From Tetrahymena thermophila SB210 (taxonomy: Eukaryota > Ciliophora > Oligohymenophorea > Hymenostomatida > Tetrahymenidae), in assembly GCF_000189635.1 (NCBI RefSeq), contig NW_002476575.1, forward strand, positions 1 to 64,000: a stretch of 64,000 bases of DNA, given 5' to 3'. The stretch's first letter is position 1; each line of letters begins with the position of its first letter. Below the pieces are notes generated by a model. That model was not told the DNA's origin. It saw only the letters and a list, made by a program, of their open reading frames with translations, and made no database searches. This document shows, one piece after another, positions 14 through 16,443 of this stretch. The translations under genes were made by a program, and so were the position numbers.

Positions 14-2394
14 TGGAAATTAAATTGGTGATGAAGGTGCATCAGGCTTAGGTTCTGCTTTAGCAAATTGCATTAATCTCACGAATTTGACACTTAACCT
101 TTAGTAAAAACAGTTTATTTGTTTTGGATTGTGATATTTTTAATTTTAAAAACTAATTAAAAACAATAAAGCTCTTTATTCTTTATTCTTTTTCTTTTTA
201 TTGTGCTTGCTTTTTTTTGTTCTTTCTTTGTTAATTAAGCTCATCATTTTATTTTAAAATTTTGCTTTTATTATTAATTAATTAATCTTATCATTTCATA
301 TTTTTTCTTCATTTTTTCCTTCTAATTAACTATTTAATGATATATTTTTTCTTCAATATTTAAAAAGTGAAAATAAAATTGGTGCAATGGGTACATCAGG
401 CTTAGGTTCTGCTTTAGCAAATTGCATTAATCTCTCTAATTTGACACTTGACCTTGGGTAAAAACAGTTTATTTGATTTGAATTGTGATAATTTTAATTA
501 TAAAAACTAATTACAAACAATAAAGCTCTTTATTCTTTTTCTTTTTATTGTGCTTGCTTTTTTTTGTTCTTTCTTTGTTAATTAAGCTCATCATTTTATT
601 TTCAAATTTTGCTTTTATTATTAATTAATTAATCTTATTATTTCATATTTTTTCTTCATTTTTTCCTTCTAATTAACTATTTAATGATATATTTTTTCTA
701 CAATCTTTAAAAAGTTACAATTAAATTGGTGCAATGGGTGCATCAGGCTTAGGTTCTGCTTTAGCAAATTGCATTAATCTCTCGAATTTGACACTTGACC
801 TTGGGTAAAAACAGTTTATTTGATTTGAATTGTGATAATTTTAATTATAAAAACTAATTACAAACAATAAAGCTCTTTATTCTTTATTCTTTTTCTTTTT
901 ATTGTGGTTGCTTTTTTTTGTTCTTTCTTTGTTAATTAAGCTCATCATTTTATTTTCAAATTTTGCTTTTATTATTAATTAATTAATCTTATTATTTCAT
1001 ATTTTTTCATTTTTCCTTCTAATAAACTATTTAATGATATATTATTTCTTTAATATTTAAAAAGTGGAAATTAAATTGGTGCAATGGGTGCATCAGGCTT
1101 AGGTTCTGCTTTAGCAAATTGCATTAATCTCTCGAATTTGACACTTTACCTTTAGTAAAAATAGTTTATTTGTTTTGGATTGTGATATTTTTAATTATAA
1201 AAACTAATTACAAACAATAAAGCTCTTTATTCTTTTTCTTTTTACTGTGCTTGCTTTTTTTTGTTCTTTCTTTGTTAATTAAGCTCATCATTTTATTTTC
1301 AAATTTTGCTTTTATTATTAATTAATTAATTTTTTTTCCTTCTAATTAACTATTTAATGATATAATTTTTCTTCTATATTTAAAAAGTTGGAATGAAATT
1401 GGTGCAATGGGTGCATCAGGCTTAGGTTCTGCTTTAGCAAATTGCATTAATCTCTCTAATTTGATACTTGACCATGGGTAAAAACAGTTTATTTTATTTG
1501 AATTGAGATAATTTTAATTATAAAAACTAATTACAAACAATAAAGCTCTTTATTCTTTATTCTTTTTCTTTTTATTGTGGTTGCTTTTTTTTGTTCTTTC
1601 TTTGTTAATTAAGCTCATCATTTTATTTTCAAATTTTGCTTTTATTATTAATTAATTAATCTTATTATTTCATATTTTTTCTTCATTTTTTCCTTCTAAT
1701 TAACTATTTAATGATATATTTTTTCTACAATCTTTAAAAAGTTACAATTAAATTGGTGCAATGGGTGCATCAGGCTTAGGTTCTGCTTTAGCAAATTGCA
1801 TTAATCTCTCGAATTTGACACTTGACCTTGGGTAAAAACAGTTTATTTGATTTGAATTGTGATAATTTTAATTATAAAAACTAATTACAAACAATAAAGC
1901 TCTTTATTCTTTTTCTTTTTACTGTGCTTGCTTTTTTTTGTTCTTTCTTTGTTAATTAAGCTCATCATTTTATTTTCAAATTTTGCTTTTATTATTAATT
2001 AATTAATCTTATTATTTCATATTTTTTCTTTTTTCCTTCTAATAAACTATTTAATGATATATTATTTCTTCAATATTTAAAAAGTGGAAATTAAATTGGT
2101 GCAATGGGTGCATCAGACTTATGTTCTGCTTTAGCAAATTGCATTAATCTCTCGAATTTGACACTTAACCTTGGGTAAAAACAGTTTATTTTTTTTGGAT
2201 TGTGATATTTTAAATAAAAAAATGAATTTTAAACAAAAAAGTTCTTTGAATTTATTTGATAGCTTTTATTTATTTTATTTTTTTTATCATTTTTATTGAA
2301 CTAATTTTATTTTATTTATTAATTTAAAGAATAATTTTTAATTTAAAACTTTATTCTATTTTGATATTTATTAATAATTTACACAAATTTATTA
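14..2394 (+). repeat. Tandem exon+intron LRR units with 3-unit higher-order repeat
   Basis: The exon/intron unit recurs every 323-354 bp (exon starts 14, 368, 715, 1065, 1388, 1742, 2085). Introns as well as exons are conserved, including the blocks TTAATTAAGCTCATCATTTT and CAATAAAGCTCTTTATTC. Variants repeat with a three-unit period of about 1,020 bp: unit 2 resembles unit 5, 3 resembles 6 (both with TCTACAATCTTTAAAAAG acceptors), and 4 resembles 7. This is what unequal crossing-over in three-unit steps would leave. Confidence 0.85.
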
Positions 2395-2494
2395 TAGATA
2401 TAAAAACTCAATAAATGAATCATAAATATTAAAAGTAATAAACAAGTGTCGTAAATCAAAAAGATTAGTTGTCTTTTAGATAAACAACTGGTGA
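14..2494 (+). CDS. LRR protein gene A, 5'-truncated by window edge
   Basis: Seven 90-nt exons each encode one 30-residue leucine-rich repeat of ribonuclease-inhibitor/NLR type (core I-G-[DA]-x-G-x-S-G-L-G-S-A-L-A-N-C-I-N-L-x-N-L-T-L). Exons: 14-103, 368-457, 715-804, 1065-1154, 1388-1477, 1742-1831, 2085-2174. The last exon, 2398-2494, ends at TGA. Each LRR exon starts with one base completing a split codon and ends two bases into the next, so all join in frame; donors are mostly GTAAAAACAG and acceptors TTTAAAAAG. The last exon encodes KCRKSKRLVV and relates to the last exons of the neighbouring arrays. Such repeats form curved protein-binding solenoids; the ligand is unknown. The 5' end lies left of the window, so N-terminal domains are unseen. 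Repeats 2-7 share near-identical introns, showing recent amplification. Family and exon structure are clear; function is inferred only as protein interaction. Confidence 0.85.
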
Positions 2495-14800: not shown

Positions 14801-16443
14801 TCAAAATAATGAAAAAAAACAATTTCAATTAAAAATAAATAATTAAACAAAGTTTAATAGTAAAAAATATAAAAATATGAAAATAAACTGTTTTTACGAA
14901 AGTAGAAGGGCCAAATTTAATAAATTAGTAGAAGTTCCTAAAGCAGAGGCTAAGTCTGATAAACCCTTATCACCAATTTAAGTTTCACTTTTTAAATAAT
15001 AAAGAAAATATAAATAGTAAATGTGAAGAATGAAATAAATAACTTAAAATCAAAATTAAACTAATCAAAGGTATAATAATAATAAAAAAAAATAACAAAT
15101 ATTTAAAATAAATATCAATCAAATTAATGGATTTTGTTGTTTTAAGATAATTTTTATTTTCAAAAATATCACAATCTAAAAAATAAGCTGTTTATTTTTA
15201 CAAAAGATCTAGAGTCAAATTTTACAATTTTGTGCAATTTACTAGATTTTAACCTAAGGTTTGTGCGCCAATGGCACCTAATTAATTCTCTCTTTTAAAT
15301 ATAAAAAAAAATTTTGTCAAAATAAAAATGAAAAAAAATAAAAAAAGTTTGTAATAATTAAAAAAGTTGAAATAAAACATTAAAAATCAAAAAAGATACC
15401 GAAAAAAATAAAAAAGAATTATATTTTTAAGTTAAAAAGTATGAAAGTTGAAGCTAATAATATTATTTTTACCTAAGATTAAGTATCAAATTTGAGAGTT
15501 TAGAGCAGCTTTATAAAGCAGCACTTATATTTGATGAACCTTCTGCATTTATTTCATTATTACTTTTTAAATATATATTTAATAAATTTGAAATAAAAAA
15601 AAAGTATCAAATAAAAATTTTAAAATAGTAATAAAAATAAAATTCTTATGAAATGATAAACAAACCAAATAAAAAGATAGATTATAGATTTTTATTATTT
15701 TAATTTATTTTATATTAAAAATATCTAAATCAAAAATAGGTATAATTTTTACTCAAGATTAATTTCAAAATTAACGAGATTAGTACACTATGTTATAGCA
15801 TGGGCTAAAGCTGATGCACCCTCTACGCCAATTTAATTATCACTTTTAAATTTTGAAGAAAAATATAATTATCTAGAGTAATTTAATCAAGAAGAGAGTA
15901 AAAATAAAAAATTAAAATAGTAATAAAAATCAAAAATATTAAAAAAACCAAATAAAAAGTACTAAATTAAGGGAGCTTTGTTGTTTTAAGTTATTTTTTG
16001 TGTTAAAAATATTAGAATCCAAAACAAATAAATAAATGAATATTGATTACCGAAGATTGAGATTCAATTTTTAGAGATTAATGCATTTAGCCAAGGCAGA
16101 ACTTAAGGTAGATACACCTTATGCACCTATTTAACGGTAACTTTTTTCATTTTAAAGAAAATAATAAAATATTGAATTAACTTTATTCAGAATTAAACCC
16201 ATTGAAATAAATAAAAAAGAATAATAAAATAATAAATAGTAATATTTTTAACTTGAAAAATTTAACACTAAAAAAGATATTAATTAATTTAATTTACTCT
16301 TGTTCAATTAAGAGAAGTGTATGAGATTCCAGAGAGGAGCATAAAAACTTTTTATGAGAAAAAAGAATTTAATGAGCAATCAATTAAGAAAGTATTTTAT
16401 TTACGTCTTCTAGATTATCGTAATATTAATTCTATTCTATCAT
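11804..16443 (-). CDS. LRR protein gene C, complete, 13 repeats
   Basis: Sixteen minus-strand exons: leaders 16405-16443 (MIEQNQYYDNLED) and 16298-16347 (FLCSSLESHTLLLIEQ), then 90-nt LRR exons 16051-16140, 15753-15842, 15473-15562, 15202-15291, 14898-14987, 14615-14704, 14213-14302, 13863-13952, 13557-13646, 13111-13200, 12729-12818, 12411-12500, 12083-12172, and last exon 11804-11876 (RKSKRLVELFIIV, TGA). The sum is 1,332 nt, 443 residues, in frame at every junction. Leader lengths and phases equal those of gene B, supporting both models. No signal peptide or membrane helix is visible; the product is probably a cytosolic protein-binding solenoid. Repeats are more diverged than in A, so this array is older. 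An alternative transcript could skip the last exon and continue into array D in frame. Confidence 0.82.
14146..14202. repeat. (AAAT)n microsatellite in gene C intron
   Basis: A perfect tetranucleotide repeat ending about ten bases from the donor of the intron after exon 14213-14302. In gene sense it is (TTTA)n, the same motif and the same near-donor position as 6781-6831 in gene B. Confidence 0.97.

What the first reader, a model, noticed from the sequence alone, without database searches (positions are those of the whole stretch)
14..16443. One exon equals one LRR: symmetric 90-nt exon modules in four arrays
All 36 intact LRR exons in arrays A-D are exactly 90 nt, begin with one base of a split codon and end two bases into the next. 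Any exon can therefore be added, lost or skipped without a frameshift. This makes the locus a natural exon-shuffling system for building LRR proteins of variable length, which could diversify binding specificity by unequal crossing-over or alternative splicing. Exon phase and length are seen directly; the diversification role is inference.
Basis: partly seen in the sequence, partly recalled or inferred. Interest (0 to 1): 0.75.

Follow-up and report, generated by a model that had tools for sequence, protein, structure and literature searches.

The report
Shuffled LRR exons with hypervariable faces
These are ciliate (Tetrahymena) genes built from interchangeable 90-letter exons, one protein repeat each; that design was published in 2019, but the copies also show that residues on the presumed binding face change far more than the rest, which suggests a recognition repertoire.

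Summary
All 36 LRR exons in four arrays are exactly 90 nt, with AG/GT splice sites, phase-2 junctions and no in-frame stop under the ciliate code. The arrays are separate genes on two strands: B and D are complete predicted models, A is cut by the contig end, C lacks a first exon. The genome is Tetrahymena, most likely T. thermophila. The architecture, and exon shuffling by unequal crossing over, are already published for this genus (Xiong et al. 2019, PMC6564038).

In 142 recently amplified exon-intron units from the window and 20 loci, introns differ by 6.4% per site. Codons 1, 28 and 30 have amino-acid heterozygosity 0.80-0.87; codons 6-7 come next (0.61-0.69); silent sites beside the three codons are nearly fixed. 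Four further loci repeated this. These codons lie on the strand-turn of the LRR, the usual binding face. I read this as diversifying selection on a homogenised scaffold, as in brown-algal ROCO LRR exons and PRDM9. Splicing isoforms, ligands and strain variation are untested.

The parts
14..103 (+). array A LRR exon 1 (gene A, 5' part lost at contig end)
   Evidence: 90 nt, AG|GTAA
368..457 (+). array A LRR exon 2
   Evidence: 90 nt
715..804 (+). array A LRR exon 3 (identical to 1742-1831)
   Evidence: 90 nt
1065..1154 (+). array A LRR exon 4
   Evidence: 90 nt
1388..1477 (+). array A LRR exon 5
   Evidence: 90 nt
1742..1831 (+). array A LRR exon 6
   Evidence: 90 nt
2085..2174 (+). array A LRR exon 7
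   Evidence: 90 nt
2398..2494 (+). gene A predicted terminal exon, ends TGA
   Evidence: phase-2 compatible acceptor; KSKRLV motif shared with other arrays' 3' ends
4327..4472 (+). gene B predicted first exon, 146 nt, ends in phase 2
   Evidence: homologous first exons in other loci
4729..4818 (+). array B LRR exon 1
   Evidence: 90 nt
5140..5229 (+). array B LRR exon 2
   Evidence: 90 nt
5472..5561 (+). array B LRR exon 3
   Evidence: 90 nt
5806..5895 (+). array B LRR exon 4
   Evidence: 90 nt
6192..6281 (+). array B LRR exon 5
   Evidence: 90 nt
6678..6767 (+). array B LRR exon 6
   Evidence: 90 nt
7062..7151 (+). array B LRR exon 7
   Evidence: 90 nt
7384..7473 (+). array B LRR exon 8
   Evidence: 90 nt
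7717..7806 (+). array B LRR exon 9
   Evidence: 90 nt
8074..8163 (+). array B LRR exon 10
   Evidence: 90 nt
8391..8475 (+). gene B predicted terminal exon, ends TGA; whole model is a 376-aa open frame
16298..16443 (-). gene D predicted first exon, 146 nt, ends in phase 2
   Evidence: homologous to gene B first exon
16051..16140 (-). array D LRR exon 1
   Evidence: 90 nt
15753..15842 (-). array D LRR exon 2
   Evidence: 90 nt
15473..15562 (-). array D LRR exon 3
   Evidence: 90 nt
15202..15291 (-). array D LRR exon 4
   Evidence: 90 nt
14898..14987 (-). array D LRR exon 5
   Evidence: 90 nt
14615..14704 (-). array D LRR exon 6 (GTAC donor)
   Evidence: 90 nt
14213..14302 (-). array D LRR exon 7
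   Evidence: 90 nt
13863..13952 (-). array D LRR exon 8
   Evidence: 90 nt
13557..13646 (-). array D LRR exon 9
   Evidence: 90 nt
13111..13200 (-). array D LRR exon 10
   Evidence: 90 nt
12729..12818 (-). array D LRR exon 11
   Evidence: 90 nt
12411..12500 (-). array D LRR exon 12
   Evidence: 90 nt
12083..12172 (-). array D LRR exon 13
   Evidence: 90 nt
11804..11897 (-). gene D predicted terminal exon, ends TGA; whole model is a 469-aa open frame
11454..11532 (-). decayed extra copy of a terminal exon between genes D and C
   Evidence: similarity to the terminal exon seen in the translated frames; frame disturbed
11158..11247 (-). array C LRR exon 1 (most diverged, still 90 nt)
10876..10965 (-). 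array C LRR exon 2
   Evidence: 90 nt
10474..10563 (-). array C LRR exon 3
   Evidence: 90 nt
10120..10209 (-). array C LRR exon 4
   Evidence: 90 nt
9983..10072 (-). array C LRR exon 5 (47-nt intron before it)
   Evidence: 90 nt
9639..9728 (-). array C LRR exon 6
   Evidence: 90 nt
9371..9458 (-). gene C predicted terminal exon, ends TGA (no first exon found for C)

Best explanation
These are members of the Tetrahymena 90-bp-exon LRR gene superfamily. Shown: each exon is one 30-residue RI/NOD2-type LRR in phase 2-2, and the predicted first and terminal exons have matching phase, so modules can be copied, lost or swapped in frame. Shown for recently amplified copies: introns, buried leucines and most silent sites differ little, while codons 28, 30 and 1 differ almost freely. 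These lie in the strand-turn L-x26-L-x28-L-x30-x1-N of the repeat. Inferred: unequal crossing over and gene conversion multiply and homogenise the units, and diversifying selection keeps the concave-face residues different, so each gene carries its own binding surface. The intron falls inside the variable patch, between residues 30 and 1, so exchanges in introns recombine it. The first exon base is mostly T or C, so residue 30 is normally set by the upstream exon alone. Least certain: the proteins are recognition proteins (food bacteria, pathogens, self/non-self).
For: Exon geometry 36/36. B and D are open models of 376 and 469 aa; LRR_6 is the only Pfam family well over its cut-off in them (LRR_4 in B barely over). 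142 young units (of 181 with 225-290-nt introns) from the window and 20 loci: mean intron diversity 0.064; exon nt 2-4 0.61-0.70, nt 83 0.63, nt 89/90 0.74/0.53; first seven intron bases at most 0.06, last twelve at most 0.04, nt 1 0.12. Highest amino-acid heterozygosity of 30 codons: 1 (0.87), 30 (0.854), 28 (0.797); codons 4, 12, 16, 21 zero. Codon 28 NAY (102 units): first base 0.62, silent third base 0.16, difference 0.34-0.56 by bootstrap over loci; third bases of codons 29 and 2 uniform in 132/133 and 139/139. All 10,011 young pairs: intron 0.064, pS of the other 27 codons 0.075, pN at the three codons 0.54. Variable sites differ 9.1 times as much as introns (7.7-10.5, bootstrap over loci, between-locus pairs, at most six units per locus). 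Four further loci, codons fixed beforehand, 14 units: intron 0.069, variable sites 0.578, rest 0.087. 106 distinct 28-30-1 triplets in 142 units.
Against: My first grouping (160 nearest-neighbour exon pairs) did not single out the strand: exposed strand codons pN/pS 1.1-1.8, loop/helix codons 2.1-2.5, because silent counts pile up in codons 1, 23 and 28. Silent differences inside the three codons stay high later too (pS 0.30-0.37). Multi-step codon changes inflate them, but a local mutational or conversion process is not excluded. Codons 7 and 6 are also very variable (0.69, 0.61; a DE/AM block), and the other exon sites exceed introns 1.45-fold. For pairs with introns 20-40% apart, whole exons no longer exceed introns (0.247 vs 0.254). 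Xiong et al. report gene-level Ka/Ks below 1 and read it as purifying or relaxed. Loci were found by similarity to one window unit, so array-A-like introns are favoured; units in an array are not independent. The LRR register is ambiguous: this repeat is two residues longer than NOD2's and the alignment puts the gap in different places. No RNA, protein, ligand, germline or strain data.
Confidence: 0.74

Rival explanations
1. Targeted diversification: a mutator or templated gene-conversion process acts on the variable codons themselves, in the germline or while the macronucleus develops, rather than ordinary mutation followed by selection.
For: Units with 0-0.4% intron difference on both sides still differ in 3-12 exon bases (6 pairs, all in L017). 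Silent change inside the three codons is also high. A recurrent two-state block at codons 6-7 suggests short-tract exchange.
Against: Within codon 28 the silent third base stays C in 93 of 102 NAY codons, and codon 29 between the variable codons is nearly fixed. At codon 30 TG (Cys/Trp) is rare and TA (Tyr) common (TA 14, TG 3, against 25 and 86 for other first bases, Fisher p 3e-6; shared descent can add to this). No mutator gene or template was sought.
Confidence: 0.12
2. Relaxed constraint: surface residues drift, while introns and scaffold look young only because recombination homogenises them. No diversity is favoured.
For: Within-array intron differences are lower than between arrays (0.046 vs 0.065). 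Xiong et al. read their Ka/Ks as relaxed purifying selection.
Against: Silent third bases of codons 29 and 2, within a few bases of the variable codons, are nearly uniform, so homogenisation should also cover the three codons. These differ 7.7-10.5 times more than introns, and drift cannot exceed the neutral rate.
Confidence: 0.08
3. Diversity is made mainly by alternative splicing: exons are skipped in frame to give isoforms from one gene.
For: Every exon can be skipped without a frameshift, and brown-algal LRR exons of like design are reported to be alternatively spliced (PMC11378527, abstract and passages).
Against: No transcript data here. 'Alternative splicing' does not occur in the Xiong et al. 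main text. Symmetric phase also follows simply from exon duplication.
Confidence: 0.05

Closest known systems
[quoted passage not shown] 2019, PLoS Biol, PMC6564038; abstract, sections 9, 11, 15 part 1, 27 and passages read)
   Same: Exactly 90-bp exons, phase-2 introns, tandem arrays of variable length, leucines centred at nt 36, 48, 66, 75, 81, 87, introns near 257 bp in T. thermophila, proposed exon shuffling by unequal crossing over. This is the same family.
   Different: That paper reports purifying or relaxed selection from gene-level Ka/Ks; 'positive selection', 'hypervariable' and 'diversifying' do not occur in its main text. The binding-face hypervariability is added here.
Brown-algal LRR-ROCO genes (PMC11378527, abstract and passages; Zambounis et al. 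2012 is cited there and was not held)
   Same: One phase-2 exon per LRR, exon shuffling, positive selection on the concave face. Selected sites 14, 16, 18, 19 have the same 2-2-1 spacing as codons 26, 28, 30, 1 here.
   Different: 72-bp exons, a different LRR type, and a ROC-COR GTPase domain that the window genes lack. Codon 26 is only moderately variable here (0.32). Probably convergent.
PRDM9 zinc-finger array (PMC3890296, abstract and passages)
   Same: Homogenised tandem coding repeat in which variation sits mostly at three ligand-contact codons that escape homogenisation.
   Different: Zinc fingers binding DNA, in one gene (fingers in a single exon: recalled), not a superfamily of single-exon LRR modules.
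Lamprey variable lymphocyte receptors (PMC3900441, search listing and start of abstract only; details recalled)
   Same: Modular LRR proteins with hypervariable concave-face residues (recalled).
   Different: VLRs are diversified somatically by a conversion-like process; nothing somatic was tested here.

Membership tests
[quoted passage not shown]
   36 of 36 in the window, arrays of 7, 10, 6, 13
[quoted passage not shown]
   36 of 36 by sequence, also predicted first and terminal exons; no cDNA
[quoted passage not shown]
   L at codons 12, 16, 22, 25, 27, 29 in 33, 33, 32, 33, 34, 31 of 36
[quoted passage not shown] thermophila) | tested here: met
   table 6 reading frames; long identical stretches to telomerase chain 6d6v (its organism is recalled) and a ciliate telomerase RNA hit (sequence agrees with my recall of T. 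thermophila)
[quoted passage not shown]
   met for array A (233-264 nt, 1.2-5.6% different); B, C, D introns span 47-396 nt and look older (not aligned)
[quoted passage not shown]
   no germline assembly searched
Ribonuclease-inhibitor/NOD2-type LRR (LRR_6) | Pfam LRR_6 match over cut-off | tested here: met
   E 1.2e-21, 9.6e-9, 5.4e-23 for B, A, D exons joined; best PDB hit 9y6s_8O E 3.2e-19, 5irm_A E 3.5e-12 (the name NOD2 for 5irm is recalled)
Brown-algal LRR-ROCO | 72-bp LRR exons and ROC-COR domain | tested here: not met
   90-bp exons; no ROC-COR in B or D at E up to 0.1
Lamprey VLR | somatic assembly from cassettes | not testable with these tools
   no germline-versus-soma data
Diversifying selection on LRR concave face | replacement change above neutral rate at strand-turn positions | tested here: met
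   by comparison of paralogous units, not alleles; a first grouping did not single out the strand
Diversifying selection on LRR concave face | variable residues lie on the concave face in a structure | tested here: inconclusive
   placement by alignment only, with an ambiguous two-residue register

The most novel reading that the evidence does not exclude
A single-celled eukaryote keeps a repertoire of over a thousand binding proteins (the published LRR gene count) whose contact residues are diversified by a dedicated process, such as short-tract gene conversion or a targeted mutator acting on codons 28, 30 and 1, possibly during macronuclear development: a germline or somatic counterpart of lamprey VLRs.
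Probability: 0.1. Interest if true: 0.95.

Novelty: already known. Interest (0 to 1): 0.5.

Why it matters
The architecture is in print. What changes is its meaning: the function of the huge Tetrahymena LRR family is open, and the published reading of its selection is purifying or relaxed. Binding-face hypervariability on a homogenised scaffold says these genes are selected to differ in what they bind, and it names the residues. That makes a recognition role directly testable in a laboratory ciliate. It also gives an independent parallel to brown-algal LRR exons, with the same exon phase and the same spacing of selected sites.

Tried and rejected
Rejected: exon 11158 being a broken 87-nt exon (the next AG restores 90 nt). 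Rejected: one giant gene over 14-16443; four predicted terminal exons and two first exons show separate genes. A first pN/pS by residue group over 160 nearest-neighbour pairs gave higher ratios for loop/helix than for exposed strand codons; I dropped that measure because silent counts are concentrated in codons 1, 23 and 28, and used introns and silent sites outside these codons as the yardstick. Checked: high exon divergence could reflect a recombination boundary next to a matched intron. With both flanking introns under 2%, 13 pairs gave variable sites 0.337 and rest 0.0225, but 6 pairs come from one locus (L017) and 3 have identical exons. The 7 pairs outside L017 give 9 of 56 variable bases and 5 of 574 others by my own count from that list. 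I rely on all between-locus pairs. Checked: higher mutation at G/C sites. GC-consensus intron columns have diversity 0.133 against 0.050 at A/T columns, too little to explain 0.53-0.74. For exons 368 and 1388 of array A the excess is significant against their own intron (p 1e-4) but not against the family-wide intron rate (p 0.35), so array A alone is not decisive. A Pfam LRR_6 genome search found only 2 matches, probably because single exons score low. No structure was predicted: the genes are spliced and that tool takes proteins read directly from DNA.
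Full report
What is there. The window is the first 64 kb of contig C7 of a 101-Mb, 445-contig genome. Reading frames follow the ciliate code. The genome carries a ciliate telomerase RNA and a telomerase protein gene whose exons are identical over long stretches to PDB chain 6d6v, which I recall as T. thermophila. Between 14 and 16140 lie 36 LRR exons, all exactly 90 nt, all with AG before and GT after, none with an in-frame TGA. They form four sets: A 7 (+), B 10 (+), C 6 (-), D 13 (-). Each set has its own predicted terminal exon ending in TGA with a KSKRLV motif (KLKRLV in C). 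B and D have homologous 146-nt first exons that also end in phase 2, and both whole models are open (376 and 469 aa). A is cut by the contig end. No first exon was seen for C. First exons like that of B occur in at least 9 of the 20 fetched loci at E 3e-12 or better (my listing was cut). All models are predictions without cDNA.

Is it more than chance? The 36 exon hits have E-values from 9e-27 to 2e-14; 33 of them seeded the model. Neighbouring exons within a gene are separated by 47-396 nt while exon length never changes. In the window plus loci L009-L030, 268 of 284 evaluable hits were exactly 90 nt by a nearest-splice-site rule, 14 gave 81-99 nt and 2 had no site; 5 of 289 hits lay at sequence ends and were not judged. 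One of the 14 is window exon 11158, which is 90 nt with the next AG. None of 270 exact-90 exons has an in-frame TGA. Of 1296 possible joins among the 36 window exons 2 create a TGA, and in 1252 the junction residue is the one set by the upstream exon with T. The first base is T or C in 34 of 36 window exons and in 232 of 268 exact-90 exons.

Already known. Xiong et al. 2019 (PMC6564038; abstract, sections 9, 11, 15 part 1, 27 and passages) describe exactly this: 90-bp exons, more than 98% phase-2 introns, leucines at fixed positions, 1 to 51 exons per gene in T. thermophila, about 257-bp introns, unequal crossing over, REP retrotransposons, RNA-seq support for arrays (figure legend), and a suggested role in recognition. 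They report median Ka/Ks of about 0.4 for young LRR gene categories and call it relaxed purifying selection.

Unequal exchange. In array A, exons 715 and 1742 are identical and their following introns differ at 4 of 253 sites; the introns after 368 and 1388 differ at 3 of 257 while the exons differ at 7 of 90. The first six units have introns 1.2-5.6% apart and exons 0-15 of 90 bases apart. That exons differ more than introns prompted the next test.

The selection test. From the window and 20 loci I took 181 units with introns of 225-290 nt and called 142 young because their introns are within a median of 10% of array A's (threshold arbitrary). Mean intron diversity is 0.064. Exon diversity is 0.63, 0.61, 0.70 at nt 2-4, 0.63, 0.28, 0.37 at nt 83-85, and 0.74, 0.53 at nt 89-90. 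It is also 0.53-0.59 at nt 18-22 (codons 6-7). The first seven intron bases are at most 0.06 and the last twelve at most 0.04. Ranked by amino-acid heterozygosity, codons 1, 30 and 28 come first of 30 with 17, 16 and 13 residues; 7, 6, 15, 3 and 26 follow; codons 4, 12, 16, 21 never change. In codon 28 the first base is G, T or A in 54, 25 and 21 of 102 NAY codons while the silent third base is C in 93 of 102. The third bases of codons 29 and 2 are the same in 132 of 133 and 139 of 139. Silent differences in the other 27 codons (0.075) are close to the intron rate (0.064); replacement at codons 1, 28, 30 is 0.54 (10,011 pairs). Between loci these sites differ 9.1 times as much as introns (7.7-10.5, 300 bootstraps over loci, at most six units per locus). 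Four loci fetched afterwards, with the codons fixed in advance, gave 23 exact-90 exons of 26 hits and 14 usable units: intron 0.069, variable sites 0.578, rest 0.087. In the window's own 36 exons the highest residue entropies are at 1, 30, 28 and 11 (3.32, 3.15, 2.83, 2.81 bits).

Results that do not fit neatly. A first grouping by residue class (160 nearest-neighbour pairs) gave pN/pS 1.4-2.0 overall, but 1.1-1.8 for exposed strand and 2.1-2.5 for loop/helix codons. Silent counts inside the three codons are high (0.30-0.37), and codon 23 has a silent two-state difference. Other exon sites exceed introns 1.45-fold. Among pairs with introns 20-40% apart whole exons do not exceed introns. Codons 6-7 show a DE/AM block. 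In one locus four successive units have introns 0-0.4% different but exons 3-12 bases apart, more than new point mutations would give, which points to short-tract exchange. Homogenisation within arrays is modest (intron 0.046 within, 0.065 between; variable sites 0.484 and 0.565).

Where the codons lie. Joined exons match LRR_6 and, among 13 PDB sequences, chain 5irm_A (rabbit NOD2, recalled; best hit is 9y6s_8O). In one repeat of that alignment, anchored on the shared Asn, codons 26, 28, 30, 1 fall on x3, x5, x7, x8 of LxxLxLxxN. In other repeats the two-residue gap is placed elsewhere, which shifts the register. In every register 26, 28 and 30 alternate with the leucines 25, 27, 29 of the strand. 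That face usually binds ligands (PMC3138743, passages). No structure was predicted.

Comparison. The nearest parallel is the brown-algal ROCO LRR exon: 72 bp, phase 2, shuffled, with positive selection at sites 14, 16, 18, 19 on the concave side (PMC11378527, abstract and passages); the spacing equals codons 26, 28, 30, 1. The PRDM9 zinc-finger array shows the same logic (PMC3890296, passages). I saw no report of hypervariable or positively selected LRR residues in Tetrahymena in the listings (25 of 71, 2 of 2, 15 of 240, 12 of 15 and 10 of 30 papers shown) or in the main text of PMC6564038. The library lacks most subscription journals and all preprints.

Verdict. Commitment: unequal exchange plus diversifying selection on the binding face, 0.74.

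Noticed in passing
window 1; contigs C48, C230, C193, C2, C142, C378, C414, C61: In 9 of 21 contigs (window plus the 20 loci) an LRR exon lies within 300 bases of a contig end (my count), so these arrays seem to break the assembly and repeat counts there are lower bounds.
   Followed up: partly
window 11454-11532 (-): A decayed extra copy of an LRR terminal exon sits between genes D and C, perhaps the remnant of a lost gene.
   Followed up: partly
young exons genome-wide, codons 6-7 (e.g. window 14-103 versus 368-457): Two alternative residue pairs, DE and AM, differing at up to five neighbouring bases, recur across arrays with similar introns; unexplained, may mark short-tract exchange.
   Followed up: partly
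window 17605-18615 (+): Uninterrupted open frame with a SIMPL/DUF541 domain (E 3e-32) beside the LRR cluster.
   Followed up: no
window 35135-37708 (-), 58760-59992 (-), 20959-22707 (-): Open frames with C2H2 zinc fingers, an alpha/beta hydrolase and a MORN repeat.
   Followed up: no
window 6349-6521: About 43 copies of a 4-base repeat inside an intron of gene B.
   Followed up: no
window 32001-34000: Strong G-over-C skew (+0.446) compared with the rest of the window.
   Followed up: no
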